A stretch of DNA of 64,000 nucleotides from Cladocopium goreaui. Its lineage: Eukaryota > Sar > Dinophyceae > Suessiales > Symbiodiniaceae. The notes under the pieces were generated by a model, which saw nothing but the letters and a program-made list of their open reading frames with translations, searched no databases and was not told where the DNA came from. Position numbers and translations under genes: made by a program. Of this stretch, positions 331-46,900 are shown in pieces. Location: assembly GCA_947184155.2 (NCBI GenBank), contig CAMXCT020000510.1, forward strand, positions 1 through 64,000, in the 5' to 3' direction. The number at the start of each line of letters is the position of its first letter. The first letter of the stretch is position 1.

Positions 331-441
331 CCTTTTTCTCGCTCTTTTTTTTGCGCCTCCCTCCCGCCAGCATGTCTTTTATTTGCTTGCTCGCTTTAGG
401 CCGAGGGTGGTACCGGCGGCGCAGTCACGAAACGGCAAACT

Positions 442-1145
442 CCTTTCGCACGAAATGAGGGTCGATCGGCAAAAACTGAGGTAAAATTGCGATTTGACTT
501 GTCCTGGAGCAACCCTTTCGCACGAAATGAAGGTCGATCGGCAAAAACTGAGGTAAAATTGCGATTTGACTTGCTCCGGAGCAACCCTTTCGCACGAAAT
601 GAGGGTCGATCGGCAAAAACTGAGGTAAAACTGCGATTTGACTTGACCCGGAGCAACCCTTTCGCACGAAATGAGGGTCGATCGGCAAAAACTGAGGTAA
701 AACTGCGATTTGACTTGACCCGGAGCAACCCTTTCGCACGAAATGAGGGGCGATCGGCAAAAACTGAGGTAAAAGTGCGATTTTACTTGTCCCGGAGCAA
801 CCCTTTCGCACGAAATGAGGGTCGATCGGCAAAAACTGAGGTAAAACTGCGATTTGACTTGACCCGGAGCAACCCTTTCGCACGAAATGAGGGTCGATCG
901 GCAAAAACTGAGGTAAAAGTGCGATTTTACTTGTGCCGGAGCAACCCTTTCGCACGAAATGAGGGTCGATCGGCAAAAACTGAGGTAAAAGTGCGATTTT
1001 ACTTGTCCTGGAGCAACCCTTTTTGCACGAAATGAGGGTCGATCGGCAAAAACTGAGGTAAAACTGCGATTTTACTTGTGCCGGAGCAACCCTTTCGCAC
1101 GAAATGAGGGTCGATCGGCAAAACTGAGGTAAACTGCAATTTTAA
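442..1145. repeat. 72-bp tandem array, about ten copies
   Basis: The block CCTTTCGCACGAAATGAGG recurs every 72 bases (442, 514, 586, 658, 730, 802, 874, 946, with degenerate copies near 1018 and 1090). Each unit also carries GTCGATCGGCAAAAACTGAG. Because 72 is a multiple of three, frames on both strands stay open and give 24-residue protein repeats, which I treat as an artefact. The CGCACGAAATG core recurs in other arrays of the window. Confidence 0.9.
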
Positions 1146-1147
1146 CT

Positions 1148-1760
1148 TGTGCCGTTCTTGTCTTGTGTAAAAGCGCCTGTGTGTAAAAACTTCTGTGTGT
1201 AAAAGTCTCTGTGTGTAAAAGCGTCTGTGTGTCAAAGCGTGTCTGTGTGTAAAGCGTCCTGTGTGTAAAGTTTGTGTGTCTCTGTGTGTAAAAAAGCGCT
1301 GTGTGTCAAATCGTTGTGTTCAAAGTGTTGTGTGTAAAAGCGTCTGTGTGTAAAAGTGTTTGTGTGTAAGCGTTTTCTGTGTAAAAAGCGTCTGTGTGTA
1401 AAAGCGTCTGTGTGTAAAAGTGTCTGTGTGTAAAAGCGTCTGTGTGTAAAAGTTGTCTGTGTGTAAAAGCGTCTGTGTGTCAAAGCGTTTGTGTGTAAAA
1501 GCGTCTGTGTGTAAAAGTGTTTGTATGTAAAAGCTTCTGTGTGTAAAAGTGTTTGTGTAAAGTGTTTGTGTAAAAGTGTTTGTGTAAAAGCCTCTGTGTG
1601 TACATGTGTTTGTGTGTGACAGCGTCTGTGTGTAAAAAGCGTCTGTGTGTAAAAAGCGTCTGTGTGTAAAAGCGTCTGTGTGTCAAAGGGTTTGTGTGTA
1701 AAAGCGTCTGTGCGTAAAAGTGTTTGTATGTAAAAGCTTCTGTGTGTAAAAGTGTTTGTG
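1148..1760. repeat. 16-bp minisatellite (GTGTGTAAAAGCGTCT)
   Basis: Tandem copies of a unit close to GTGTGTAAAAGCGTCT, with point changes and one- or two-base length changes. The retrotransposon at 1761-9741 interrupts this array, which continues at 9744-9830. The same minisatellite forms an independent array at 12668-13530. Confidence 0.9.
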
Positions 1761-1890
1761 TTGAAACAAAAAGCAGCACAGCGTATTTTTGTGCTGAACA
1801 ATTTGACAAGTCAGGGGTTGGTGGGTGGAATTGAACCTATCAACCTGGCCATTTTGGCTCAAGGGCCAGGCCAATTGTAACATTTTCTTT
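1761..1890 (+). repeat. Split direct repeat A1 (5' terminus of the DIRS-like element)
   Basis: A 130-bp sequence starting TTGAAACAAAAAGC and ending CATTTTCTTT, repeated at 9403-9532. It contains a small hairpin (CAGCACA at 1774-1780 pairing with TGTGCTG at 1790-1796) and a second hairpin (CCTGGCC 1844-1850, GGCCAGG 1864-1870) whose loop lies in the spliced-leader-like sequence. Confidence 0.9.
1848..1863 (+). other. Spliced-leader-like sequence in the A1 repeat
   Basis: GCCATTTTGGCTCAAG is an exact match to the last 16 nt of the 22-nt dinoflagellate spliced leader (DinoSL) as I remember it. The preceding bases differ (CCTG instead of CCGTA). It lies 52 bases upstream of the gag ATG and recurs in A2 at 9490-9505. 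Inference: the element carries a leader relic, gained by reverse transcription of a trans-spliced RNA, or uses an encoded leader in its own transcript. Confidence 0.6.
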
Positions 1891-1914
1891 TTCCAATGCG
1901 GTGCTTCGCGCGCC

Positions 1915-3327
1915 ATGGCCTGGCCTACCAATTTGGCCTCTTTTGGGTCGCTGCGGGAGTGTCGGACGTTCTTTGGGATCTCCGTCGACCTGTGGGCGGC
2001 ATTCACTCAGGTGATCGGGGACCCGAAGGACGATTCGAGGATTTTGGCCGCGCTTCCACCTTCGATCATCCAGGCCGCCATCGAGACGACGGTTTTGGAC
2101 AGCGGCGACCCCATTTCCTTGGTGCAGGCCGCGCGGTTGGGGTTGGTCTACAGATTGGCGAAGCGAAAGCAACATGCAGACGCTGGACTGGACCTGACAT
2201 TCTGGATCGACCCAGATCCTTGGGCTACACCTGCGGGAGCACCGGCACAACAAATGGGGGACACCGGGAATCAGACGAAGGCACCCGAGAGGAAGCTGAA
2301 GTTTGCCAGCATTCTGGATCAGGCAGACGATTCGGAATTCATGGTGGCGAGCGAGATGCAGAAGCAGGTGTGGTTGCAGACATATGTCAACTTGACAGGC
2401 GACCTACCCATGGAGCAGGAGGAGCCCACGACGGAGCAACTTTCGGCTCTGCACAGAAGGTTGACTTCGAAGCAGTGCCCCTATGCAGACTTCGCAGTTT
2501 TCCTCCCCTTTGGAAGGAAGGCACATCGTGCCCAAAAATACAGGACCTACGTCATGACACCGAATGGCTTCTACACGAAGGAACTGCCGGGGCCCAGTGG
2601 CATAGACCAGTGGCGAGCCTCGTTCAGGGTCTATCGCACTGCGCTGTTGATGCTGCAGGCCATCACGATGTCGACGGCGGTGGCGTACGAGGCCTTCATA
2701 GAGAAGATGGACCGCCTGTACAAGGGCTGCTGGCACCTCATTGTGCAGGCCGACGAGCTGGCGAGGTCGGAGCACATGCTCAGGTTGAAGGTGTCGACAG
2801 AGATGGACATCACCATGGGCGGGAAGGAGCCAGCGATGTGGAACGTGGACAACCCTTGGGAGGCCCTATTCAGAAGGCTTCTCAAGGATTCCGACTTCTG
2901 GGCCGAACAAGTCCACCTGCCGGCCAATGCATGGTTGGCCCATGGCTCCAGAGGCAAGCTCCTCACGCCGTCGGAGGCCATTGCAGAGTCCAGCATCCAA
3001 GGGGGCTCTGCGGTGCTGAAGCCAGACGTGGAGGGGACGAAGAACACCCAAGAGCCATGGAAGAAGTCGGCAAACGCCAGACGGAAAGAAGCAAAGAAAA
3101 GAAAGTGGCAAGAGGCGGAGGAGAAGAACACCGGCACGAAGGGAAAAGGAAAGGGGAAAGGAAAAGGGAAGGCCCCGGCATGTTATGCATGGAACAACAA
3201 CAATGGGGCCTGTGCTGGACTCCCTCCAGGATCTGCCTGCCGAGGAAACGTCGCAAGAGAACACAGATGCACAGCCTGCGGTTCACCGGGACACCCCTCA
3301 CATCAATGCTCACAGAAAGAAGGCTGA
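1915..3327 (+). CDS. Gag-like protein of the DIRS-like element
   Basis: Nucleic-acid-binding structural protein of the retrotransposon, about 470 residues. I chose ATG 1915 (context GCCATGG) because the frame upstream runs back into A1 with only a GTG at 1825. The N-terminal and central parts have no motif I recognise. A basic, G/K-rich stretch (about 3135-3175) precedes two cysteine clusters: a C..C..C..H arrangement starting CYAW near 3181 and containing LPPG, then a CCHC zinc knuckle CTACGSPGHPSHQC ending near 3312. The stop at 3325-3327 overlaps the next gene, which lies in the -1 frame. A heptamer of frameshift type, A AAG GGG, is at 3150-3156, but it lies upstream of the zinc motifs and so is an unlikely fusion point. 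Confidence 0.8.
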   Translation: MAWPTNLASFGSLRECRTFFGISVDLWAAFTQVIGDPKDDSRILAALPPSIIQAAIETTVLDSGDPISLVQAARLGLVYRLAKRKQHADAGLDLTFWIDPDPWATPAGAPAQQMGDTGNQTKAPERKLKFASILDQADDSEFMVASEMQKQVWLQTYVNLTGDLPMEQEEPTTEQLSALHRRLTSKQCPYADFAVFLPFGRKAHRAQKYRTYVMTPNGFYTKELPGPSGIDQWRASFRVYRTALLMLQAITMSTAVAYEAFIEKMDRLYKGCWHLIVQADELARSEHMLRLKVSTEMDITMGGKEPAMWNVDNPWEALFRRLLKDSDFWAEQVHLPANAWLAHGSRGKLLTPSEAIAESSIQGGSAVLKPDVEGTKNTQEPWKKSANARRKEAKKRKWQEAEEKNTGTKGKGKGKGKGKAPACYAWNNNNGACAGLPPGSACRGNVAREHRCTACGSPGHPSHQCSQKEG

Positions 3328-6300
3328 TCGTGGAGCTCAAGAGGGATTGGAAGAAGTCTGCACGACGCCACAACTGGACACAAGGCAACTTCCAGGTGCC
3401 CTACTTCGCATGGGGGACGTCCAGATCCAGGGGAAGGGAAGACAAGGCCTACGAGAAGGAAGACGACGAGAAGAAGGAAAACAAGCAGAGCCCGCATAAG
3501 AGACGTCGGACAACCAAGGACCCTGACAATGACGATGAACCCAAAGCGGAGTTCAACGGCAAACTCATGACGGTGGACGTCTACACGATGAAGAGAAGGT
3601 TCAACTTCCTCCATATGTACGCGGGCAAGAAGGATCCTTTGGGAGAAGCCATCAAGAGACAGGCAAAGGCCCACAGGATGAAAGTGACGGTCATCTCTTG
3701 CGAGAAGGAAAACGGCGTCGACCTCCTGGCGGAGGAACCTTACCTGGAGTTTTTGGAGAAGGCGAAGGAAGGCTTTTGGGATGGGATGCATTCGGGATTT
3801 CCATGTACATCCTTCTCGAGACTTCGGTGGCGGGAAGCGAAGGGTTATCCAGGACCAGTTCGGTCGAAGAGGCATCCTTATGGAATACCAGGTATTCCAA
3901 GACATCGACAACAAGAAGCAGACGAAGGGACGTTGCATGCGTCGAGAACGGCGCACATGGCCGATCGAATCATTTCCTCCAGGCCGGAAGACAGACTGAG
4001 GCCCTTCGCAACTCTTGAAAATCCTCCCCCAACTGACCACGGCGAACACCTGTCAGCGTGGGAGTTGCCGGAGATTGCAAACCTGTTCGAAAAGTATGAA
4101 CAAGACTTCATCCTGGCGGAGTTCCCGACCTGCATCTACCAGCCCCACCTGGACTTTGGACTGAGGACATTTAAGCCCCAGATGTTCGGAGGGACACTAC
4201 CGGGCCTATCTTCGTTGAGAGGCAAGTGCAGGTGCGGCGATGAACCTCACGTACCTGTGGTGGGAAAGGAACGGTCGGCGGCCTCGGGTGAATATCCCGA
4301 GGACCTGTGCAACACGTATGCCAGGTTGGTCATCAGGCAATTTCAGAGGATGGCCAAAGCGGAGTTCTTCACCAAGAGACAGGAGGACCTCAGAAAGGAG
4401 GTGGATGAGCTCAGGAAAAGAACGGAGGAGCACGCGAGAGGGAGGTCAAGGTCGGCACGAAGGGTGAAGCAGAAAGAAGAAGAGTCTGACAGGGTGATCA
4501 AAGAGGAGGACACCATCAAGGCGACTGCTTCATCAAAGTCGAAGAGCAAAGCCAAGGCCAAGCAGGACGCAGAAGAGTACGAGTACACGTACGAGTACGA
4601 ATCCTCCGAAGAAGAGAGGGCGACCGAGAAGGAGAAAACCAAAGGTGAGAACTCCCCCATGGACGCCAAGAAGGTCAAAAACGATGGTGACAGAGACTGG
4701 AAAGGGGGTTCTGGAAAGTTTGGGATGCTGGGAGAATCCAAAGCCAAAAGGGAAGACCCCCGTAACCTGAACTTCTTGGGAGGCATGCGCAACCCAGCAG
4801 AAGTGGTCGAAGGGATGCCCAACGCCCTGAGCCTGGGTTTGAGGATATTCGCTGCATGGGAGCGCTTCATCAAGTCGAACCCATCGACGCTTGAGACGGC
4901 AGCCGCCTACGGCACGGAGGCCTGCGACCTCGACGAGAAGGCCCTGGCCCTGGATAGATGGCGGGCCGAACTACGAAAGGCGGTGGGGGCGAAGGGGAAG
5001 ATGAAGGCACAATTGAAGTCGAAGTGGACCTTCACTTCGCCCATTCATGGCGACATCCTCGAAGCCTGGACCATGAAGGCGGCGGATCCCGACACCGAAG
5101 TGGCCAAGTGGGTGACGGAAGGCACACCGCTGGGCATCAATTGCGACATCAAGAGCAAGGGCATCTTCCCGCCGTCTGACAGACACGCGGAACAGGAATC
5201 CATGGTCGACGCAGCGATGCAGATGGCCAGGGGAGCGCTGGTAAACTATTCGTCGGTGCTGGAAAACAAGGAGGACACGAAGGTAGAAGTGGAAAGACTG
5301 GAGAGGTTGGGCTTTTTGAAGAAGATCGACGGAAGAACGGTAAGAGAAGAGTTCTCCCGGGGCACCATCTCGAAGTTGGCGATCATCATCAAGGAGAGGC
5401 CGGACAAAACCAAAAAGCGAAGGCTGATAATCGACTTGAGAAGGTCAGGGGGAAACTCCAAAGCCCGACTCGAAGAAAGGTTGGTGCTCCCGAGGGCGGT
5501 GGACGCGGTAGCCATGATGCGCACCATGTCAAAGCTACAAGAAGCGCCCTCAGCGGCTGAGCAGAGACAAATGTGGAAGAGGGAAATGGTGCTGATTGAT
5601 GTCGCCGACGCCTTCCCCCACTTGGCAGTGCACCATCAGGAACTCGAGCACTGCATCACCCCTGGACTGCACGAAGGAGAATTCTTCTTGTTCAGGGCAC
5701 TACTCTTCGGCTACAAGACGGCACCCTTACTGTGGTCCCGAGTGGCCGCTTTGCTGGGGCGGATGATACAAGCGTGTGTGCCCCTGCATGAAGGAAGACA
5801 TCAGATCTACCTGGACGACTCCTTATGGCTACTGCAGGGAACACTACAAAGGAGGACCGAAGTCCTGGCGTTTGTGCTCTACACGATGGCAGCCCTGGGC
5901 TTCAACCTCTCCATTAGGAAGGGAGAGAGAGGGTCAAGAGTGACCTGGTCAGGCATAGAGTTCCACTTAGGGGACAATCACGTTTTGCTGACCTTGCCGG
6001 AGAAGTTCATCAACGACCTCCAAGAGAAGGTGAAGGCGTGGGATTCCAAAGGAATGGCTTCTCTGAAGGAGTTGAGAGCCATCTGTGGAAAGCTCTCGTG
6101 GTTGGCAGGGGTACTGCCGAGGACCCGCTGGATGCTCCGCGTCTTCTACGCGGTTTTGGCAGGAAGAGAAGCCGAAGTGAAACAGGGCCTGGAAGAGAGT
6201 AGGAGGAAAGCCCGCGAGGACACCAGGCCCAAAGAGCATTTGTTTGTGGTCAAACGCTTGGAAGGAGCAAGGCAAGCGTTGATCGAATACCTCAACGTGA

Positions 6301-6932
6301 CGAAGGAGAGACCAACAAGGAAGATTTCTTTGACCACCAGGGACAGGGCAAAGGTGACCATCACGACTGACGCGTCACCCGAAGGGTTAGGAGCCGTTCT
6401 GATCGTGAATTCCCAGGTCATCGATGCCATTGCGACCCCGGTGACAGAACAGGATGCGAAGGACCTGGAATTTGAATTAGGGTCCTCCGCGTCTCAAGGA
6501 ACAGTGGAAGCCCTCGCAATGGTGGTGGCCCTGCACACCTGGGGAAACAAGTTGGCAGGCATGGCGGTGGAGCTGACCATACAGGCCGACTCGGTGACGG
6601 CGCTTGCCATGGCGCAGAAGCAGTCTGCAGCCTCCCCAGCTATCAATTTCTTGGGAGCAACCTTAGGCATCCTGCTGGAAAAGGCCAAGGTAGAAGAGAT
6701 GAAGCTCGTGCACATCCCAGGAGCGGCCAACAAGACCGCCGACTACCTGAGCAGGCCTTCCAAATGGAAGGGGACCCCTAGGCCGCCGGAACTTGGCGAT
6801 GTTAAGGTGACCGAGGTGGGGCCAAGGGGTCAGGATTTCTATCAGTTGGCACCACCCGGACGTAAGCCGGATTTGTGGGGAGCCTCTGAAGGCGAGGAAG
6901 GTCTCGGACCCTGGTACTCACTTTTCAAATGA
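3306..6932 (+). CDS. Pol polyprotein: methyltransferase-like, reverse transcriptase, RNase H
   Basis: Copies element RNA into DNA. The frame is open far upstream, but protein-like sequence begins near 3306, where an ATG overlaps the gag stop by 22 bases; expression may use restart or -1 frameshifting. First comes a Rossmann-like segment (3600-4080) with HMYAG (motif-I-like), GFPCTSFSR (Cys codon at 3804) and LENPPP (4014-4031), resembling motifs I, IV and VI of C5 cytosine methyltransferases. A charged, acidic linker follows (about 4330-4700). Reverse transcriptase has LIDVADAF (first catalytic Asp codon 5598), LLFGYKTAP and the YLDD box (5808-5819). RNase H has TTDASPEG (Asp 6369), Glu 6507, Asp 6588 and HIPGAANKTADYLSR. 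Methyltransferase activity is inference; RT and RNase H are secure. Confidence 0.88.
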   Translation: MLTERRLIVELKRDWKKSARRHNWTQGNFQVPYFAWGTSRSRGREDKAYEKEDDEKKENKQSPHKRRRTTKDPDNDDEPKAEFNGKLMTVDVYTMKRRFNFLHMYAGKKDPLGEAIKRQAKAHRMKVTVISCEKENGVDLLAEEPYLEFLEKAKEGFWDGMHSGFPCTSFSRLRWREAKGYPGPVRSKRHPYGIPGIPRHRQQEADEGTLHASRTAHMADRIISSRPEDRLRPFATLENPPPTDHGEHLSAWELPEIANLFEKYEQDFILAEFPTCIYQPHLDFGLRTFKPQMFGGTLPGLSSLRGKCRCGDEPHVPVVGKERSAASGEYPEDLCNTYARLVIRQFQRMAKAEFFTKRQEDLRKEVDELRKRTEEHARGRSRSARRVKQKEEESDRVIKEEDTIKATASSKSKSKAKAKQDAEEYEYTYEYESSEEERATEKEKTKGENSPMDAKKVKNDGDRDWKGGSGKFGMLGESKAKREDPRNLNFLGGMRNPAEVVEGMPNALSLGLRIFAAWERFIKSNPSTLETAAAYGTEACDLDEKALALDRWRAELRKAVGAKGKMKAQLKSKWTFTSPIHGDILEAWTMKAADPDTEVAKWVTEGTPLGINCDIKSKGIFPPSDRHAEQESMVDAAMQMARGALVNYSSVLENKEDTKVEVERLERLGFLKKIDGRTVREEFSRGTISKLAIIIKERPDKTKKRRLIIDLRRSGGNSKARLEERLVLPRAVDAVAMMRTMSKLQEAPSAAEQRQMWKREMVLIDVADAFPHLAVHHQELEHCITPGLHEGEFFLFRALLFGYKTAPLLWSRVAALLGRMIQACVPLHEGRHQIYLDDSLWLLQGTLQRRTEVLAFVLYTMAALGFNLSIRKGERGSRVTWSGIEFHLGDNHVLLTLPEKFINDLQEKVKAWDSKGMASLKELRAICGKLSWLAGVLPRTRWMLRVFYAVLAGREAEVKQGLEESRRKAREDTRPKEHLFVVKRLEGARQALIEYLNVTKERPTRKISLTTRDRAKVTITTDASPEGLGAVLIVNSQVIDAIATPVTEQDAKDLEFELGSSASQGTVEALAMVVALHTWGNKLAGMAVELTIQADSVTALAMAQKQSAASPAINFLGATLGILLEKAKVEEMKLVHIPGAANKTADYLSRPSKWKGTPRPPELGDVKVTEVGPRGQDFYQLAPPGRKPDLWGASEGEEGLGPWYSLFK

Positions 6933-7105
6933 CATGCGAAAAGGAGCAAAACACCAGGGTGAGGCTTAATTTCAGGAAAAATTTGGGAAGGAAAGGGAAC
7001 CCGCTGGGGCTGATGTTTGTTGTCAGGGTTTTCTCTCCTCCTCCATTGTTGGTTTGTCTTTTCAACTTCGGGAAAGGGTCCGTTGATTGCAGCCGCCGGT
7101 TCAAA

Positions 7106-7447
7106 ATGGACACCACCAGCTCGAACTTAGGCCTCGCGATCCAATGGCTAGCCCTGACGGGCCTGGCGGTGCACCTGTGGGCCTTGGGATGGGGCTTATG
7201 GGCTTGCTGCAGGCGAAGAGAGGTGTGCCCTTTCGCTCCATCAACGAGAGTGGAGGCGGGACGAATGTGGGCATGGAGACAACAACACCCGCGAGCTCCC
7301 TCACCTCCCTGCTACGAAGGCCCGCGGCGGCGCCAGAGCGGTGGTCAGGGTCTGGCGGGCCTGATTCGACGGCAAGACCCGGCACCAGACAACGTGGTCA
7401 CGAAAGGCAAGAAGGGCTCGAAGGGACAGAAGGGAGCAGGCCGCTGA
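7106..7447 (+). CDS. Possible small overlapping ORF with one membrane helix
   Basis: A 113-residue ATG-started frame between pol and the recombinase, overlapping the recombinase N terminus in another frame. Residues about 8-33 are strongly hydrophobic (LGLAIQWLALTGLAVHLWAL), then CCRRRE, and the C terminus is basic (KGKKGSKGQKGAGR). The composition looks more like a membrane protein than a random shadow, but the alternative frame is also open here, so only one of the two may be translated. I do not recognise a family. Confidence 0.25.
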   Translation: MDTTSSNLGLAIQWLALTGLAVHLWALGWGLWACCRRREVCPFAPSTRVEAGRMWAWRQQHPRAPSPPCYEGPRRRQSGGQGLAGLIRRQDPAPDNVVTKGKKGSKGQKGAGR

Positions 7448-9285
7448 AACGACCAAAATCCTTTGCCGAACTGCGCAACAAAGGCTCCACCAGCAACAAC
7501 AACGCTGCTTTCGGCAGACTCAAGCGGGAAACGCTCACCGTAACCTACCCCGAAGAGGAAGAAACAGGGCACCTTCTTGCTGGCGGTGACGAAGGTGTGG
7601 GACCCAGCCCTTTCAAGGACCTAGAATTCGAAGCAGGAGGACTCCCCGTGGCCTTTGAGGACGGGAAAGCAACGGAATCGGCATTTAGCTCCATGGTCAA
7701 GATGGCAAACAACACCGCGGCGAAGGCAAAGGAAAAGCTGGCGGCAGTTGTAGAGTTCTGGAGTCCGAAGAGGGCTAAACATGCAGATCCTCACATACCC
7801 GAAGGGCTGTGGAACGACGACGAGGAGAACCACCTTGAGAGATGCCCCGTGGGCGTGTCCGACAAAGGACGAGGGAAAGATCGCAAGACCAAGAAACAAA
7901 AGGCCGCCAACATACTGGCCATTGCCCGGAGGGCGTCGATGTCGAAATCCACGACCATGGCCCTTGAAAAGGACTTTGCATCGGTCACGTCCGTGAAGAG
8001 CAAGAAGGCCATCAGGAACACCGTCAACAGTGTCTTCAAGGAGGCGAGAGGGTCATCCGGACTGCCACCAACACCAGACAAAATCAAGCTGCTGGGGGGA
8101 ATTTTGAAAGCGGCAGGTTACCGGGCCGCGGGAAACTACCTGGGGGAATACAAGCTGATGGCCATCGAAGGGGGCTACAACTGGTCAGATCAGTTGGAGA
8201 GAACCCTGAAACTTGCAAAGAGATCGTCAGCAAGAGCCGTCGGACCCAAGAAGAAAGCAGCTGAGGTGGAGACATGTGAGACGGGCGAGAACTTCGCGGT
8301 GAAGGCCTCCGCAAAAGTCCCAAAGCGGGTTCCTTTGGCGGCGGAACTCTTTGAGTTCGGAGTCATCTGGATGCTCAGGGAAGTTGAACTAGCCGCCATC
8401 AGGAAGGACCACATCTTCCTCGACTTCCAAAACAAGAAGGTCACGTTCACCCTCCCGGTTTCTAAGGGAGACCAAGAAGCGTTGCAGGTCAAGAGAGTGC
8501 TCCAATGCCTTTGTGAAAGGAACATCTGTTACATGAGCTGCCCCTTCTACACGTCGGTGAGGCTGCTGGATCGCATGAGAGCGCTGGGATTGAGCCGGGC
8601 TTGCATGAACAAGAAGGCAAAGCTCGCGTCCAAAGCGCAACTGGTCGATGACTGGAGGCTCTTGTACGGCACGATGGTTTCTGGTCATTCGGCGAGAAGA
8701 ACCGGAGCCCTGAGATACATCAGGCAGGGTTGGGCGATCGCGCAAGTGGCATACTTGGGCAGGTGGAAGTCCTCCGTCATCTACGAGTATGCGGCGGAAG
8801 CCCTGGAATCGCTCCCAGTGAACGTTGGAGATACGTTCGGAGCCAAAAGAGAACTCCCCGACACGGGACCCCAGGCCAATAGCTTCGTGGGGGTGTCAAG
8901 GGAGGAAGTCGAAGGGATCAAGAACTATCTGCTTGCAGAGCTGGAGGCGGCGAAGGTGGACCAGGGTCAAGCGTTACAAAACCTGGACAGGGAAGTAGAG
9001 GAACTTCGTGCCAGGGACATCAGACTGGGGAACAAACTGCCCCCAGCAGTGCAATCCTTGCCGAGCAAGGTCGTCCACTACAACATGGACATCGCAAGCT
9101 GCAGCCCACCAAGAGCATGGAGGACGGTGTGCGGGTGGCACTATCATCGTTCCGATTTTGTCTTCGTCACGAAGGTGGATGGGCTGCACTTATGCAAGAA
9201 GTGTTGGGACCTCGCGCGGGGCAATGGAGTGAGAGATGGCGAGGGTCCCAGCAAAGCCAGCCATGAAAGAAAGGTGTCAAACTGA
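7144..9285 (+). CDS. Tyrosine recombinase of the DIRS-like element
   Basis: Integrates the circular cDNA in place of a DDE integrase. The open frame begins upstream, but the first ATG is at 7144, giving about 713 residues. The N-terminal half is low-complexity and basic. The catalytic domain (about 8340-8830) shows the family signature: first Arg in WMLREVELAAI (codon 8377), HxxR in GHSARRTGALRYI (His 8686, Arg 8695), Trp in GRWKSS (8764), and the likely nucleophile Tyr in IYEYAAEAL at codon 8788, eight residues after the Trp; the Tyr at 8782 is the alternative. A helical charged segment follows, then a C-terminal cysteine/histidine cluster (CGWHYH ... CKKC). The stop lies inside repeat B1, so the last 20 codons are part of the terminal repeat. 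Confidence 0.87.
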   Translation: MASPDGPGGAPVGLGMGLMGLLQAKRGVPFRSINESGGGTNVGMETTTPASSLTSLLRRPAAAPERWSGSGGPDSTARPGTRQRGHERQEGLEGTEGSRPLKRPKSFAELRNKGSTSNNNAAFGRLKRETLTVTYPEEEETGHLLAGGDEGVGPSPFKDLEFEAGGLPVAFEDGKATESAFSSMVKMANNTAAKAKEKLAAVVEFWSPKRAKHADPHIPEGLWNDDEENHLERCPVGVSDKGRGKDRKTKKQKAANILAIARRASMSKSTTMALEKDFASVTSVKSKKAIRNTVNSVFKEARGSSGLPPTPDKIKLLGGILKAAGYRAAGNYLGEYKLMAIEGGYNWSDQLERTLKLAKRSSARAVGPKKKAAEVETCETGENFAVKASAKVPKRVPLAAELFEFGVIWMLREVELAAIRKDHIFLDFQNKKVTFTLPVSKGDQEALQVKRVLQCLCERNICYMSCPFYTSVRLLDRMRALGLSRACMNKKAKLASKAQLVDDWRLLYGTMVSGHSARRTGALRYIRQGWAIAQVAYLGRWKSSVIYEYAAEALESLPVNVGDTFGAKRELPDTGPQANSFVGVSREEVEGIKNYLLAELEAAKVDQGQALQNLDREVEELRARDIRLGNKLPPAVQSLPSKVVHYNMDIASCSPPRAWRTVCGWHYHRSDFVFVTKVDGLHLCKKCWDLARGNGVRDGEGPSKASHERKVSN

Positions 9286-9404
9286 CACTTAAGTTTGGCA
9301 AGGCTGGCTGAAGCTGGAATCCTAAGCATTGGACACAAACCTCACCAACGCTGAAAAGGTATCGCTTCCCTTGCTGGTGATTGGTTGCGATGTCGAATTG
9401 TTTT
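9225..9404 (+). repeat. Split direct repeat B1
   Basis: 180 bp starting TGGAGTGAGAGATGGC and ending GTCGAATTGTTTT, repeated at 9562-9741 with no difference seen. It overlaps the 3' end of the recombinase gene and abuts A2. The B1/A2 joint shares TT, as expected of a circle junction sequence. Confidence 0.9.
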
Positions 9405-9532
9405 GAAACAAAAAGCAGCACAGCGTATTTTTGTGCTGAACAATTTGACAAGTCAGGGGTTGGTGGGTGGAATTGAACCTATCAACCTGGCCATTTTGGC
9501 TCAAGGGCCAGGCCAATTGTAACATTTTCTTT
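9403..9532 (+). repeat. Split direct repeat A2
   Basis: The 130-bp internal copy of A1, with no difference seen. It carries a second copy of the spliced-leader-like 16-mer at 9490-9505. 29 bp of unique sequence separates it from B2. Confidence 0.9.
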
Positions 9533-9561
9533 CCCTCTGCCACCCACCCAGAAAATGAAGG

Positions 9562-9741
9562 TGGAGTGAGAGATGGCGAGGGTCCCAGCAAAGCCAGCCA
9601 TGAAAGAAAGGTGTCAAACTGACACTTAAGTTTGGCAAGGCTGGCTGAAGCTGGAATCCTAAGCATTGGACACAAACCTCACCAACGCTGAAAAGGTATC
9701 GCTTCCCTTGCTGGTGATTGGTTGCGATGTCGAATTGTTTT
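9562..9741 (+). repeat. Split direct repeat B2 (3' terminus)
   Basis: The terminal copy of B1. Immediately after GTCGAATTGTTTT the host minisatellite resumes (ACAGTGTTTGTGTAAAAG). Confidence 0.9.
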
Positions 9742-40574: not shown

Positions 40575-43500
40575 ATGGCTCAGCAACAGCAGCCACCTCA
40601 GCAACCAGGCACTCCACCAGCACCACAACAAGCACAAGGCAACGGTCCCAACATGTCCCAGATGGTTATGCAGATGATGGCCCAATTGACTCAGGGTCAG
40701 GCGCAGTTGAGCCAGGCAATGACCGAGGCTATGAACCAGCAGCTTCAGATCAACAGAAATGTTGAGAGATCTGTTGAGTACAAAGACAGATCAGAGTTGA
40801 AAGGCATACCAAAGCCTGACAAGTTCACTGGAGCATCAGGCACTTGGGATAGTTGGTGGTACAAGTTTAAGACATGGGTTGAAAGTTGCCACAAGAATGC
40901 TGTGAAGATTGTGGCACAAGTCGAGTCTCAGTGTGACAAAGAGATCACTGAGTCAAGTCTAGAAGTAGACTTTGATGAAGGCGCCGAGCTAGTTTCAGCT
41001 CAGGCCAGACAAGCCCTCATATCATTGACTGAGGGAGAAGCGTTGGAAATTGTCAAGAACACATCTCGTGGTAGCCACTTTGGCCTAGAAGCCATGAGAC
41101 GACTGTTGTGCAAATATGACCCTCAAAATCCTCAAGCCAATTCAGCCTTGTTGAAAAAGGTTCTGCATCCAAGTCAATGCAGTCTTGATAAGCTTCGAGA
41201 AGGTCTTGAGAGTTGGGAGAACTTGAAAAGAAAGTATGAAGACAGGAGAAAGAAACCACTTGAAGATGACATCTGCAGGAGTTGCTTGCAGCAGATGTGT
41301 CCCAACAAGTTGCAAGATCATTTGGACTTGCAGGCATCGAGATTGACGTCGTACGACCAGGTGAAAGCTGAAGTTTTGGCCTACCTTGAGAATGTCGAGA
41401 CCAGGAAAGAAGCAAAGTCAGGAGCCGTTCCCATGGATGTGGATTCCCTTGCTAAGGGTAAGGGAAAAGGAAATCAAGATAAAGGGAAAGGCAAAGGTAA
41501 GTCAAAAGGTAAAGACAAAGGTAAGAGTCAGTCTTCGTCTTGGTCAAACAATTCATACCACAAGGGTTCTTGGAACAATCAATCTTGGAATCAGCAGTCT
41601 TGGTATAAACAAAACACCAATGACTCCAAGAGCAAAGGAAAAGGCAAGAAAGGTCAAGACAAAGGTAAAGGTAAAGGTGATCAAGGCAAAGGTCGTAAAG
41701 TTGCTAATGTTGAGTCTGACACTTGGGCTCAAGAGCAACAACCTGCAGCATCATCTGGTGATCAACCTGAACCAGAGATCACTGCGCTGTTTGCCTTGGA
41801 AGACACTATGCCACCCAAGTCTGAAGCTCGAGATGAATCCTCTCGTCGTGGTCGAAGCCCAAGACGAGCAAACCTTCAGGCACCTTCAAGGAGCACTGTG
41901 ACCAGGAGCGCTATGGTGATGGCTCAGAGCGCTTTGGCATCAGCTTCTGGGTCTAACAAGGAGCTGTTTGGCAAGATGATTGCTCAGGCTGAGAGCGCCG
42001 TCAAAGAAGCTCAGGACAAAGGGCGTCAAGCAAATCAAGCTCTTAAGGAACGCCAAGAAGCCCTGGACAAGTTGAAGAAAGAGGCAGCCCAGCATCAGAA
42101 AGAGGCCAAAGAGGCAATGGCCAAAGTGAGGGCAGAAGGCCGTGCTGCTTCAGCACCGGCTGCACCCTCTCGTCGGATGCAAGCCGACCTTGATGCTGGG
42201 GTACATCCAAGAGCTGCCAAGAAGAAGGAGAAGGACAGGCAGAGAGCTGCCAGTCATCGAGCAGCCACTGCTGGACAAAGAGCATCCAGCTTCAAGCGCT
42301 ATGAGTTGGCCACCTTTGGACAGGCCAACCCCGACAAGTGGGACCAGGATGACATGGGAGATCGTCCTGAACCTCCCAAAGCAAGAAAGCTGGAACCTAA
42401 GCGCCATAGAGGAGGACATCACAGGTCTGAAAGACGAAGAGCAGATGAAGCAAGGAAGAAGGCCAATAAGGAAAAGATGAAAGAGATGAGTAAGGATGAG
42501 ATCCCACAATGGATCCATGATAAGTGTGAGATTTCCTCTGGGGAGAGCATTTCCTCTGAAGGATATGAGTTTGTCAGCAGACTTGAAAAGCTGAAAACCG
42601 ATCCTGAAGTCCTCAGCAAGTTGGACAACGTCTTGAAGGAAGCCTACGAGAAAGCCTATGGTGAAGTCCTTGACCTAGGATCTTCTGATGAGACAGATCC
42701 AGACGATTTGCCCTACAACCAGGAGCCAGCACCAGGCATGGAGGATGTGGTCGAGCATTGGCAGAATTCCTTTCGAAGACCCATTCCATTCAAGGAGTTG
42801 CATGAGAAGTGCAAAACTGTCTCCAACAAAGGGTATCCCTATGTGAAGTGCCAGTCATGTGGAAAGGCACTCAACTCCATGAGCGTTGCAAGCTTTTGGC
42901 AACATGTGGAGAACAAGCAATGCTATCCTCAGTATGCCCTGGAGTTTTGGAAGAAAGAACATCGTCAGGCAAAGGCAGAGAGAGAGGCACGAGAAGAAGG
43001 AGAATCATCCAAGAAGCGCCCCATGGATGATGCAGAGGCCAAAGATGAGAAAAAGCGCCAAGAGATCGCCAAGGATGAAGAGAAGAAGAAGCGCAAGCAG
43101 CATCTTGAGGAGCACTATGAGCGCTTCAGGCACCAGGGTAAAGATGATTTGAAGCCTGAAGTGAAGAAGATCCCCAAGAGGCCAGAGGAGAAAGAGGAAG
43201 AAGAAAAGAAAGAAGAAGAAGAGGCACCCAGAGCACCCATCGAGCTGAAGTCCAAATCCCCATCGAGAGCGCCTGAGGACAGCCGGGCTGATTCAGCCCA
43301 GGCGTCCAAGGGCAGGGGAAAGTTCAGCATGGGCACCAAGAGATTCCTGGAGAAGACGGCGCGTGATGCAGCCAACTACATGGAAAGAAAAGCCAGGAAG
43401 AAGAGGGAGAAAACGCCATCTCCCAAGCCCAGGGAGCACTCACCAGGAGGAGGAGTTCGATCAGACTCCAACCTCGACTTCCTGGGAAGTTTGGCATCTC

Positions 43501-43910
43501 CGGTGGATACCATTGTTTGGGCCACCGTTGACTCAGGGGCAGCAACCAGTTGCCTACCCAAGGAATTGGCACAGTCATTGGAGTTGGCTATGACACCTGT
43601 GGATGAGAAGCCGTTCACCAACGCATCAGGGCAGCCAGTCCAGGTGCATGGGGTGTGCAACCCTATGGTGACCATGGGTGAGAAAGGAGGCCCACAAGTC
43701 AAAGGTGTGGGACAATTCCGGGCAATGGATGTTGCAAAGCCATTGTTGTCTGTGTCCAAGCTGGTTGAGAAAGGCTGGACAGTAACCTTCGGCCCCAATG
43801 GATCGTTTCTGCAAAGGGGAGCCAAGAAGGTTCCAGTCACCATGACTGGAGGTGTTTTCAAGATAGCCATGGATTTTCATGGGCAGCCCACAGAAGGGTT
43901 GAAGGCGTAA
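40575..43910 (+). CDS. Copia Gag with C-terminal protease
   Basis: 1,111 residues from ATG 40575; unusually long for a copia Gag. The capsid-like part (about 40790-41400) begins PDKFTGASGTWDSWWYKF. A K/G-rich basic stretch follows (41450-41700, KGKGKGK type). A coiled-coil-prone charged region lies at about 41980-42130, and a C2HC zinc-finger-like motif (CQSCGK ... WQHVENKQC) near 42850-42930 stands in for the usual CCHC knuckle. A Lys/Glu-rich segment precedes the protease (about 43490-43880), whose active site reads TVDSGAATSCLP with the Asp codon at 43530; LLSVSKL lies downstream, as in copia proteases. The stop is at 43908. The next ORF is in the -1 frame, so Pol is probably made by frameshifting or a similar event. 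Confidence 0.9.
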   Translation: MAQQQQPPQQPGTPPAPQQAQGNGPNMSQMVMQMMAQLTQGQAQLSQAMTEAMNQQLQINRNVERSVEYKDRSELKGIPKPDKFTGASGTWDSWWYKFKTWVESCHKNAVKIVAQVESQCDKEITESSLEVDFDEGAELVSAQARQALISLTEGEALEIVKNTSRGSHFGLEAMRRLLCKYDPQNPQANSALLKKVLHPSQCSLDKLREGLESWENLKRKYEDRRKKPLEDDICRSCLQQMCPNKLQDHLDLQASRLTSYDQVKAEVLAYLENVETRKEAKSGAVPMDVDSLAKGKGKGNQDKGKGKGKSKGKDKGKSQSSSWSNNSYHKGSWNNQSWNQQSWYKQNTNDSKSKGKGKKGQDKGKGKGDQGKGRKVANVESDTWAQEQQPAASSGDQPEPEITALFALEDTMPPKSEARDESSRRGRSPRRANLQAPSRSTVTRSAMVMAQSALASASGSNKELFGKMIAQAESAVKEAQDKGRQANQALKERQEALDKLKKEAAQHQKEAKEAMAKVRAEGRAASAPAAPSRRMQADLDAGVHPRAAKKKEKDRQRAASHRAATAGQRASSFKRYELATFGQANPDKWDQDDMGDRPEPPKARKLEPKRHRGGHHRSERRRADEARKKANKEKMKEMSKDEIPQWIHDKCEISSGESISSEGYEFVSRLEKLKTDPEVLSKLDNVLKEAYEKAYGEVLDLGSSDETDPDDLPYNQEPAPGMEDVVEHWQNSFRRPIPFKELHEKCKTVSNKGYPYVKCQSCGKALNSMSVASFWQHVENKQCYPQYALEFWKKEHRQAKAEREAREEGESSKKRPMDDAEAKDEKKRQEIAKDEEKKKRKQHLEEHYERFRHQGKDDLKPEVKKIPKRPEEKEEEEKKEEEEAPRAPIELKSKSPSRAPEDSRADSAQASKGRGKFSMGTKRFLEKTARDAANYMERKARKKREKTPSPKPREHSPGGGVRSDSNLDFLGSLASPVDTIVWATVDSGAATSCLPKELAQSLELAMTPVDEKPFTNASGQPVQVHGVCNPMVTMGEKGGPQVKGVGQFRAMDVAKPLLSVSKLVEKGWTVTFGPNGSFLQRGAKKVPVTMTGGVFKIAMDFHGQPTEGLKA

Positions 43911-43915
43911 GTCCT

Positions 43916-46900
43916 GTGGAGACCACAGAGAGCGCAGGTAGTGGAGATGATGAACCGGGCAGTAGTAAGCTAGGTTCTCAAGCGCTACCAACTGCAGCAG
44001 CGCCGACGCAGAGAGAAAAAGAAGAGCATTTTGTCAGCCATTATCCTTTTAGGAGTTGGTGTGAACATTGCATTCGAGGTAAGGCAAAGGCAATGAGACA
44101 TGTCAAAGTAGATCATTCAGATGAGACAGTTCCTGTGATCTCAGCTGACTATTGTTTCATGAATTCAGTGGATGACACTGTCATCACAGAAGAAGTGCAG
44201 AAAAAGCATGCACCAGTTTTGATAGTACATGATCGATGGTCCAAGTTGACCTACGCACACGTTTTGCCGTACAAGGGTGTTACCCAAGGTCCTATTGGAT
44301 CTAAGTGTCTTTTGAATGACCTTAAGAAGTTTGGGTACCCCAAGATGGTCATGAGATATGACCCAGAGCCTGCACTCAACTCCGTAGTTGAGGCAGCCAA
44401 GAATGGTTTTGACAAACAGTTGGTTTTGGAAAAGGTTCCCAAAGGAGTCTCAGAATCCAAAGGGGAAATTGAAAGAGCAGTTCAAGCTATTGAATCTCAA
44501 TCCAGGACACTCAGAAGTGCCTTGGAGACAAGCTATGGAAGAAAGGTGCCAGACGACCACCCAGTTTTGACATGGTTGGTTGAACATGCTAGCACCACTT
44601 ACAATTTGTTTCACAGATCTTTGGAAGTCAAAGATGGAAAGACACCGTACTCTAGACACCGTGGTCGTGAGTGGAGAGTGTCACTACCACCGTTTGGGGA
44701 AACAATCGAATTCCTCAAAAGAGGTCACAAGTTTGAACAAAGATGGCACCAAGGAGTTTTCTTGGGAGTCAAAGACAATACCACTGAGAAGATAGTGGGA
44801 AATGCATCAGGTGTTTTCACTGTGCAAAGCATTCGACGCAAGAGTGCTGACGACAGATATGACGTCGAAACATTGATGTCAGTCACTGGGGTTCCTTGGG
44901 ATCCTCAAGCATCAAAAAGAGATGATGTTTTGCTTCCTCAGATTGTTGAGGGAGATCAGCAGCCACTGGCGCCATCAGTGCCAGTTGAGCCACCAAAGAA
45001 GTCGACAAGACGACTTTACATCACCAAACGTGATTTGGACAAATATGGCTACACCGCTGGTTGTGTCGCCTGTGATGCCACTAGAATTGGCAAGAGAGGC
45101 ACTGGAGTTCATCACACTCCAGCCTGCAGAGAAAGAATGGAACGCTTACTTCAAGCAGAAGAGGGCAACCTGAGAGTAGCCCAACATACGGCCAAGGTTG
45201 ATTCTGAAATCACTGGTCAGAAACAAGAAGTGTCCGAAGAAGGCACAAAGATCCTTTATGGATATTCCAGCGAGAGACCACAAGGAGTCCCTCAAGGTTT
45301 CAAGGTGTTTGCGCGCCTTGACAAGAATGCAAGGTATCTCAAGGGTACTATGCCAGAAGGTCCCAACTGGGACAACGTCTGGTGGAGAGTCACCAGAGAT
45401 TTCAAAACAGGAGACATTATCAAGTCTGAACCAATAGATCCTAGTTTAGGAGATGAAGTCATCAACGCGCCTTTGATTGATGACACAGATATTGTCACTG
45501 AACTGTGGTATTCAGCCACAGGGGAATCTGCGCCAAGTTTGCCAACAGCTGGACCTGCTATGGCCAGGCAGAGTCCTGCTACCGGACAAGCTGCAGATCC
45601 ACCTGCAGAAAGCGCAAGCGCAAGCACAGCCTCAGCCAAGAGGGCAGGAGGCGAGCAAGAAGAAAGAGCACACAAAAGGTTGGAAATGTCTCCAACCAAA
45701 GGTCAGAAAAGACCGGCAGACTCAGGAGGCGAAACGTCAAAGTCCAAGGACAGCCGAGCTGCTTCAGCTCAGGCGTCCAAGGGCACCAAAAGGCCACCTG
45801 AGAATGAGAGACCAGAAGACATGGATGACATAGACCAATGTCTTATGAACCTGATCATGGAAGATCGGGAGAAGTACCTTCAGTCCATTGCAGGTGAAGA
45901 AGAGCCAGTTTGTGAAGAGACAATTCCTCTTCCACCAGAACTGGAAGATGAAGCAGCCACATGGTATTATTATGATGATATCAGTGGAAAGATTTTAGAC
46001 AGCAAAGGTGTAGAACAAGCCAGAAAAGATGAGGTCGAAATCATTGAAAGTTTTCCAGTTTGGGAAAAGATTCCCAGACACAAGATGCCCAAAGGGGTAC
46101 GCACCATTGGAACACGATTGGTAGATGTCAACAAGCAGGATGAAGAGAATCCACTGTATAGAAGTAGGCTAGTCGCTCAAGAAGTCAAGAAGGGCTCAGG
46201 TTTTGACGAGTTCTTCGCAGCAATGCCAAGTTTGTCGGCTTTGAAGATGCTAGTTACAATAGCCGTCACGTTTCAGTTGCCAGACGCTGGAAAAGCTGTC
46301 AAGGAAGCCTATCGCAAGCGTAGACTTCTAGGATTTTTGGATGTGAAACGCGCCCACTTTTACTCAGATGCGACGCGTGAGATCTATGTGGAACTTCCTG
46401 CAGAAGCAAAGAAGCCTGGAGAAGATGCGGTAGGAAGATTGCTCAAGTCTTTGTATGGAACCAGAGACGCACCTCTCAACTGGGAGTTGCAAATACAGAA
46501 GGTTATGTTAGCCTTAGGATTCAAGCAAGGAAAAAGCAATCCGTGCATTTACTACCATGCAGGCCGAGACCTCAGAACTGTTGTACATGGAGATGATTTT
46601 ACAACAGCCGGAACATTTGATGACATCAAATGGCTTCACGAAGAGCTGTCGAAGAAGTGGAAATGTGTGGAACGTGGTATTTTAGGACCACCAGGAACAC
46701 CAAACACCATCCAGGACATCAGAGTCCTGAACAGAATTATCACATGGAAGGAGAATGGAATTTGGTGGGAACCAGATGCACGTCATGCAGAGTTGGTGAT
46801 TGATTTACTCGGCGATGGTCCCCGAGGAGCCAAAGTCAAGACACCACTTGCCAAGGGTTCAGTGGAAGACCTCAAGAACGCCACTGTTTTTCTCAATGAT

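What the first reader, a model, noticed from the sequence alone, without database searches (positions are those of the whole stretch)
1848..1863. Spliced-leader sequence inside the terminal repeats of a DIRS-like retrotransposon
GCCATTTTGGCTCAAG, the last 16 nt of the dinoflagellate spliced leader as I know it, lies in repeat A1 just upstream of the gag ATG and again in A2 (9490-9505). The chance of an exact 16-mer match in 64 kb is tiny. The upstream bases differ from the leader and complete a 7-bp hairpin stem. The element may have captured the leader from its own trans-spliced RNA and fixed it in a replicating repeat, giving it an encoded leader.
Basis: partly seen in the sequence, partly recalled or inferred. 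Interest (0 to 1): 0.82.

Follow-up and report, generated by a model that had tools for sequence, protein, structure and literature searches.

The report
Host leader copied into jumping genes
A group of retrotransposons in a dinoflagellate genome carries an exact 15-letter copy of the leader that the host splices onto its mRNAs, kept in the end repeats of elements that have otherwise diverged widely, which suggests that the elements need it to copy themselves.

Summary
The 16-mer lies at 1848-1863 and 9490-9505, in repeats A1 and A2 of a DIRS retrotransposon (A-genes-B-A-B). I examined 54 tyrosine-recombinase loci (53 elements) of the same genome: 33 carry an exact CCATTTTGGCTCAAG behind the recombinase gene, 2 a one-letter variant; 6 elements with the same repeat layout lack it, and 13 show neither layout nor 15-mer. 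Recombinases of carriers are as little as 26% identical. The match is nucleotides 8-22 of the dinoflagellate spliced leader with a sharp 5' edge: the leader's AG precedes it in 0 of 24 families. The flanks differ between families but fold around it in 22 of 24. Genome-wide there are 1191 exact 15-mers (reversed control 2). Of the first 100 listed, 46 form same-strand pairs 6-10 kb apart, as A1/A2 would; none of those 46 has the TAG of ordinary relict leaders, 17 of the other 54 do. This is neither chance nor a decaying relict. My mechanism, not shown: replication runs through trans-spliced RNA, and the A2 copy lets cDNA that ends in the leader re-anneal and regain the lost repeat. A substitute "encoded leader" is not supported.

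The parts
1761..1890 (+). Repeat A1, 5' end of the element
   Evidence: 135-nt direct repeat with 9398-9532, 99% identical; edges trimmed by comparison with the C67 and C11 copies
1848..1863 (+). 16-mer identical to nt 7-22 of the dinoflagellate spliced leader; the part conserved across families is the last 15 (1849-1863)
1844..1870 (+). Hairpin around the leader copy: 1844-1850 can pair with 1864-1870
   Evidence: sequence; computed folds pair it partly otherwise; this family alone is not significantly structured in the wider fold (z -1.64)
1915..3327 (+). gag-like ORF starting MAWP; 78 relatives in the protein search (capped candidate list)
   Evidence: no Pfam match
1896..6932 (+). pol-like ORF; reverse transcriptase at about 5412-5957, RNase H-like part behind it; no DNA methyltransferase domain found
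   Evidence: RVT_1 E 1.2e-05, below the curated cut-off; RNase H-like part aligned
7087..9285 (+). Tyrosine-recombinase ORF (H534, R537, Y568 nearly invariant); real start codon not determined
   Evidence: 35 homologues; alignment of 25; no Pfam match; the catalytic pattern is named from recall
9225..9402 (+). Repeat B1
   Evidence: 180-nt direct repeat with 9562-9741, 100% identical
9403..9532 (+). Repeat A2
9490..9505 (+). Second copy of the leader 16-mer, in A2
9533..9561 (+). Unique spacer between A2 and B2 with the C-rich motif CCACCCACCCA, recurrent in other families
9562..9741 (+). Repeat B2, 3' end of the element

Best explanation
Many DIRS elements of this dinoflagellate keep a cis-acting copy of the host leader's last 15 nucleotides. 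Shown: its presence in A1 and A2, exact conservation across deeply diverged families, a sharp 5' edge at leader nucleotide 8, and embedding in predicted RNA structure. Inferred: the element's RNA is trans-spliced at or near the AG that ends the copy, which replaces everything in A1 upstream of it by the leader. The first cDNA strand therefore ends in anti-leader. For the lost part of A to be restored, that end must re-anneal to A2; the leader copy plus the 16-45 nt that A1 and A2 share behind it serve as the shared stretch, as the R region does in LTR elements. Copying then continues through the upstream part of A2 and into B1, restoring a full A1 and the B-A junction on which the recombinase acts. 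Selection to match the host leader would keep the 15-mer constant while the flanks drift.
For: 33 of 54 recombinase loci carry the exact 15-mer behind the recombinase ORF, 2 a one-edit form; about 0.03 expected from its genome-wide density (own arithmetic). Among 14 representative carriers the recombinase core falls to 26% identity. Upstream positions show no leader match beyond a frequent G, and AG precedes in 0 of 24 families. All 10 same-strand pairs that I opened (of 24 pair rows) are repeats around the 15-mer with a C-rich stretch behind A2; A1 and A2 share 16-45 nt behind it in 14 of 14 pairs measured. 46 of the 100 listed sites are so paired, 0.4% expected per site, no opposite-strand pair. 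TAG-type leader copies: 17 of the 54 unpaired sites, 0 of the 46 paired. Arms of 24 families pair better with their own partner than with others' (-26.1 against -16.3 kcal/mol; 0 of 20000 permutations), and 22 of 24 A2 regions fold better than shuffles at z below -2. In four elements (three families) the 5' arm lies in B1 and the duplex is stronger at A2 (-17.8 to -32.6) than at A1 (-9.9 to -13.6), which points to a role at A2 or at the circular B-A junction.
Against: No RNA data: trans-splicing of these elements was not observed. Six elements (5 families) with the layout lack the 15-mer yet have intact repeats, so it is not indispensable to every DIRS. Of 9 listed hits of a second pol family on the contigs covered by the 100-site list, only 4 lie beside a leader pair. 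A cDNA copied to the very 5' end of the RNA would carry 7 unmatched letters at its 3' end, which must be lost or never copied; that is not explained. Arms: 13 of 24 families beat all non-cognate pairings, but 7, the window's own among them, show no advantage in that test; the window's family and C73 also miss z -2.
Confidence: 0.42

Rival explanations
1. Leader as primer: a leader-derived RNA with a free 3' end (CTCAAG-OH) anneals to the 15-nt complement in the first cDNA strand and primes the second strand, as a tRNA does at a primer binding site.
For: The conserved block is flush with the leader's 3' end and ignores its 5' seven nt, the geometry of a primer. No antisense 15-mer (up to 2 mismatches) was found in the 30 loci scanned for one, so priming of the first strand is unlikely as a general scheme; 3 of 24 families (C2, C25, C127) do hold 9-13 nt of antisense leader as pairing partner.
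Against: No known source of free leader exon; the tail shared by A1 and A2 behind the leader is not explained.
Confidence: 0.15
2. The 15-mer with its structure is a splicing signal: it attracts or positions the leader RNP, or controls the ratio of spliced mRNA to unspliced genomic RNA.
For: It ends in AG just upstream of the first gene in A1; the preceding AG of the true leader is absent in 24 of 24 families, as if a competing acceptor were avoided; a transcriptome survey suggests TG as a non-canonical acceptor before the same 15-mer (PMC12014239, section 3.1), and TG precedes it in 13 of 24 families.
Against: An acceptor needs no 15 fixed letters; the copy and its structure are kept at A2, where no gene of the element follows.
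Confidence: 0.18
3. Encoded leader: the copy substitutes for trans-splicing and gives element RNA a leader of its own.
For: It lies 32-51 nt upstream of candidate start codons (1896, 1915).
Against: Lacks leader nt 1-7, is internal to the repeat, sits in structure, is kept in A2.
Confidence: 0.05
4. Promoter: the TTTT inside the 15-mer acts as the promoter motif that has been proposed for leader relicts.
For: Song et al. 2018 propose a TTT(G) promoter role for relict leaders (PMC6050394, passages).
Against: A short T box does not explain 15 fixed letters, a sharp edge or matched flanks.
Confidence: 0.06
5. Neutral relict or chance.
For: Relict leaders are common in dinoflagellates (PMC12014239, PMC6050394; passages), and 227 copies with TAG upstream exist in this genome.
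Against: Exactness across recombinases down to 26% identity, paired placement and absence of the upstream TAG speak against it for the group as a whole.
Confidence: 0.02

Closest known systems
SymbioDIRS / DIRS elements of Symbiodinium (de Mendoza et al. 2018, PMC5890265)
   Same: A-coding-B-A-B repeats, pol and tyrosine recombinase in separate ORFs, more than one gene order, in dinoflagellate genomes (passages)
   Different: No methyltransferase domain found in the window element; 'spliced leader' occurs 0 times in that paper's main text
DinoRL relict leaders in dinoflagellate retrogenes (PMC12014239; PMC6050394; passages)
   Same: The same 15 letters, CCATTTTGGCTCAAG
   Different: Those are described as tags at the 5' end of reinserted host mRNAs; in this genome 227 copies still have TAG upstream. 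Here the 15-mer lacks TAG, lies in both A repeats of a mobile element and is conserved
PAT and Ngaro/Viper elements with split direct repeats (PMC4157794, passages)
   Same: A1 ... B1-A2-B2 layout, tyrosine recombinase
   Different: No host RNA sequence in the repeats is mentioned in the passages that I saw
tRNA primer binding site and R region of LTR retroelements (recalled)
   Same: A short element sequence matched to a host RNA or to the element's own RNA end, kept by the replication mechanism
   Different: Here the element holds the sense copy of a host spliced leader; its function is inferred

Membership tests
DIRS retrotransposon with split direct repeats | A1-genes-B1-A2-B2 direct repeats | tested here: met
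DIRS retrotransposon with split direct repeats | Tyrosine recombinase | tested here: met
   H534, R537, Y568 nearly invariant among 25 aligned homologues; no Pfam match; the fold was not predicted
DIRS retrotransposon with split direct repeats | Reverse transcriptase with RNase H | tested here: met
   RVT_1 E 1.2e-05, below the curated cut-off; RNase H-like by motif and by alignment with a fragment from C121, no Pfam RNase H match
DIRS in the narrow sense (against Ngaro/Viper) | Putative methyltransferase domain | tested here: not met
   none found by Pfam; DIRS without DNMT are reported in Symbiodinium (PMC5890265), and DIRS is used here in that wide sense
DIRS retrotransposon | No target-site duplication | not tested
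   no empty site was compared
DinoSL relict (DinoRL) | 15-mer CCATTTTGGCTCAAG upstream of a coding region | tested here: met
DinoSL relict (DinoRL) of a retroposed host mRNA | Leader's own upstream letters in the DNA, single copy at the 5' end of a gene | tested here: not met
   the window copies have CTG, not TAG, before the shared 16-mer's CC and are duplicated in A1 and A2; 0 of 46 paired sites carry TAG

The most novel reading that the evidence does not exclude
A whole radiation of dinoflagellate retrotransposons has wired the host's trans-splicing into its replication: its genomic RNA acquires the host leader as its 5' end, and a selected 15-nt leader mimic in the internal repeat serves as strand-transfer or primer site. 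That would be a kind of retroelement cis-signal that imitates, rather than complements, a host small RNA. These repeats would also be a major source of the 'relict leaders' that are counted as host retrogenes.
Probability: 0.45. Interest if true: 0.92.

Novelty: new variant of a known kind. Interest (0 to 1): 0.83.

Why it matters
How DIRS elements complete their ends is poorly understood (recalled), and how dinoflagellate retroelements cope with a host that replaces the 5' end of its mRNAs has not, to my knowledge, been asked. A fixed 15-letter imitation of the host leader gives a direct test: map RNA 5' ends and cDNA ends to it. It may also affect retrogene counts, because surveys look for the leader within 500 bp upstream of genes (PMC8045281, methods passage) or for the 15-mer next to the leader in transcripts (PMC12014239, passages); gag genes of these elements could be counted. 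In this genome 46 of the first 100 listed 15-mers are paired as element repeats would be.

Tried and rejected
Considered and dropped: a tRNA-derived origin of the A repeat (ARAGORN found none in the window); a known RNA family (Rfam none at gathering threshold); a copied SL RNA gene (no GT donor after the 15-mer in the element). Exact 16-mer matches in viral contigs fell in 6 stretches, of which one (L001) holds a full leader and five look like chance by their contexts. Searches for related elements in viral contigs gave none.

Limits. All DNA comparison is within one genome; no second species could be read. Of the 61 recombinase matches, 54 rows were examined and 7 were not fetched. Several rows are near-identical copies on two contigs, so families are the safer count. 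B-A-B was scored by script: 42 of 54 rows, 30 with the exact 15-mer between the repeats, 1 with a one-edit form between them, 8 without, and 3 (L024, L034, L064) where the longest repeat lay elsewhere. I corrected this: L032 and L082 were flagged through tandem repeats and are not counted; L024, L034 and L069 were confirmed as B-A-B and L064. That gives 41 rows: 33 exact, 2 one-edit, 6 without. The 43 A2 sites include two duplicates (L022 = L023, L041 = C55), so 41 distinct sites; 16 of the 24 families come from the recombinase search and 8 from pairs chosen because they hold the exact 15-mer, which therefore say nothing about how often it is lost. Of the 10 pairs only C55 coincides with a recombinase hit; C121 and C149 lie beside RNase H-like hits; fragments near C37 and C127 look RNase H-like by eye (Pfam RVT_3 E 0.015, below the cut-off, for C37, nothing for C121, C127 and C25). 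The piece from C2 was non-coding, and no recombinase profile match was found in the five pieces. B repeats were not read in those pairs except C55.

Literature: no paper held contains 'spliced leader', 'dinoflagellate', 'retrotransposon' and 'DIRS' together. Other searches. The library covers open-licence PMC papers only; Song et al. 2017 is not held. Zhang 2007 and Slamovits and Keeling 2008 were seen only as cited. Passages of PMC7245778 and PMC4558846 added nothing on the point.

Full report
OBSERVATION. The 16-mer GCCATTTTGGCTCAAG occurs exactly at 1848-1863 and 9490-9505; the three other places listed have 3 mismatches each. Both copies lie in 135-nt direct repeats that are 99% identical; a 180-nt repeat B flanks the second. 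The order A1 (1761-1890), gag, pol, recombinase, B1 (9225-9402), A2 (9403-9532), 29-nt spacer, B2 (9562-9741) is the split-direct-repeat plan (PMC4157794, passages), reported for DIRS elements of Symbiodinium as A-coding-B-A-B (PMC5890265, passages). The genome is 1,165,616,438 bases in 6202 contigs. It holds CCGTAGCCATTTTGGCTCAAG followed by GT 16 times, reversed control 0, so a canonical leader with a donor site is present; transcripts were not seen.

CLOSE RELATIVES. The A repeat finds 8 places: the window's two, two each on C67 and C11, and fragments on C817 and C3024. C67 and C11 are elements of the same build and keep the 16-mer and the stem in both A copies; C817 has a damaged site, and C3024 matches only A positions 2-65.

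DISTANT RELATIVES. A search with the recombinase ORF scored 61 of 367 candidates. I examined 54 of these 61 rows: 30 returned loci, 3 long fetches and 21 short downstream fetches; L022 and L023 are one element, so 53 elements. Exact CCATTTTGGCTCAAG, sense strand, lies behind the recombinase in 33 rows (32 elements). Two have a one-letter insertion (L031, L064). Six elements with clear B-A-B lack it (L062, L075, L076, L077, L081, L083). The remaining 13 rows show neither B-A-B nor the 15-mer (L032 and L082 by my correction of the script). By family, for elements with B-A-B: 16 of 23 exact, 2 one-edit, 5 without. Among 14 representative exact carriers the lowest recombinase-core identity is 26%, median 38% over 91 pairs. 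From the genome-wide density of the 15-mer about 0.03 hits would be expected in that much sequence (own arithmetic).

SHARP EDGES. Forty-three A2 sites (41 distinct) with the exact 15-mer fall into 24 families by flank similarity, 16 from the recombinase search and 8 from the paired sites below. The base before is G in 20 of 24; the dinucleotide before is TG in 13, GG in 6, AG in 0; further upstream and downstream no letter dominates as the leader would require. Thus the conserved unit is leader nt 8-22, the same 15 letters that a retrogene survey calls DinoRL (PMC12014239, passages and section 3.1).

STRUCTURE. Arms taken from 35 nt on either side pair at a mean of -26.1 kcal/mol with their own partner and -16.3 with other families' partners; 0 of 20000 permutations reach the cognate mean; 13 of 24 families beat all 46 non-cognate pairings. 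Seven families (C2, C25, C37, C121, C127, C140 and the window's own) show no such advantage in this test, nor clearly does L034 (17 of 46 at or below). With 80 nt upstream and 60 nt downstream, 22 of 24 fold better than dinucleotide shuffles at z below -2, median -3.7; the window's family (-1.64) and C73 (-0.78) do not. In C2, C37, C121 and C149 the 5' arm is the end of B1: duplex energies at A2 are -31.3, -17.8, -28.0 and -32.6, and at A1, where genomic flank replaces B1, -12.4, -9.9, -13.6 and -12.8. Three of 24 families (C2, C25, C127) hold 9, 13 and 9 letters of antisense leader near the site.

GENOME-WIDE. The 15-mer occurs 1191 times (587 + 604) against 2 for its reversed control. Of the first 100 places listed, 46 are in same-strand pairs 6-10 kb apart, 0.4% expected per site, with no opposite-strand pair; at least two C191 sites in this count belong to a local tandem array. 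The 10 pairs that I opened, of 24 pair rows, are all repeats around the 15-mer with a C-rich stretch behind A2. In these and in four other A1/A2 pairs (window, C67, C11, L063) the two copies share 16-45 nt behind the 15-mer and 15-89 nt before it by strict matching, C73 the least before it. Of 20 unpaired sites opened, by eye 5 have the leader's TAG upstream and one CCGTAA, 7 look like element repeats and 7 like neither. Copies with TAG number 227 in all; among the first 100 15-mers they are 17 of the 54 unpaired and 0 of the 46 paired, Fisher p 7e-6. So there are two populations: relicts with TAG, and element repeats without it.

SECOND GENE ORDER. A fragment of the ORF upstream of A2 in C121 is RNase H-like and aligns with the window's pol at E 2e-4 in a single comparison. 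Its search gave 151 matches from 150 scored of 845 candidates, many with open frames above 1000 aa. Of the 9 listed hits on contigs covered by the 100-site list, 4 (C121, C149, C191, C278) lie about 0.5-0.7 kb from the A2-side 15-mer of a pair and 5 (C12, C75, C88, C127, C264) do not. That these have a recombinase was not checked. A search with a distant recombinase (L063) gave 71 matches whose repeats were mostly not read.

OTHER ASSEMBLIES. Among 78 gag relatives, 9 show the peptide that the 15-mer encodes (PFWLK, [ASPT]ILAQ or HFGS[RS], all three frames) within the first 120 residues; one recombinase relative, P0024, has PFWLK at 782 of 848. Species unnamed, no chance control run.

MECHANISM. 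A2 cannot be refreshed by the host leader in a simple cycle, because it is copied from A2 of the RNA; its exactness therefore points to selection for matching the leader (inference). A match is useful if the element's RNA ends in the leader. With trans-splicing at the AG of the 15-mer, everything upstream in A1 is lost and must come from A2. The leader copy plus the shared tail behind it then serves as the region of identity for the strand transfer. The missing seven 5' letters are the weak point: they may be trimmed, or not copied because of cap-proximal modification. The cap of dinoflagellate mRNA is described as undetermined (PMC6027434, passage). The primer rival explains the 3'-flush geometry better but needs an unknown free leader. 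A splicing-signal rival is favoured by the absence of AG and by the TG remark in PMC12014239.

NOVELTY. The element class and the relict leader are both known; their union as a conserved cis-element of mobile DNA was not found in the searches made, which cover only open-licence papers and of which I read only passages.

Noticed in passing
L001:1936-2908: A 22% GC contig filed as viral (IMG/VR), with a glycosyltransferase ORF, carries two full CCGTAGCCATTTTGGCTCAAG copies, one shortly before a 254-aa ORF: it looks like a gene derived from a trans-spliced dinoflagellate mRNA.
   Followed up: partly
G000 C191:445133-449917: Seven exact 15-mers within 4.8 kb on one strand, four of the six spacings about 630 bp: a tandem array carrying leader copies.
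   Followed up: no
L062, L075, L076, L083: Elements with B-A-B but no leader copy have a comparable hairpin whose loop region holds GGCCCAAA (GGGCCCAAA in L062); L077 and L081 have TTGGCTC or TGGCTC there, perhaps worn leader copies.
   Followed up: partly
window 9533-9561 and A2 downstream flanks: A C-rich motif (CCCACCCACCC or CCCTCCCTCC and the like) follows A2 in many families and is not seen behind A1 in the 10 pairs opened; a possible cis-signal of unknown role.
   Followed up: no
L069: The repeat unit is extended: 378 nt repeated at 310-nt spacing, as B-A-B-A-B would give.
   Followed up: no
window 40575-47599: Copia-type retrotransposon: RVT_2 in the second ORF and a weak aspartyl-protease match in the first; the only leader-like site there has 3 mismatches.
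   Followed up: no
window 430-1160: Tandem array of about 90-bp units with CCCTTTCGCACGAAATGAGGGTCGATCGGCAAAAACTGAGG, followed by a GTGTGTAAAAGCGTCT-type array into which the element appears to have inserted (by eye).
   Followed up: no
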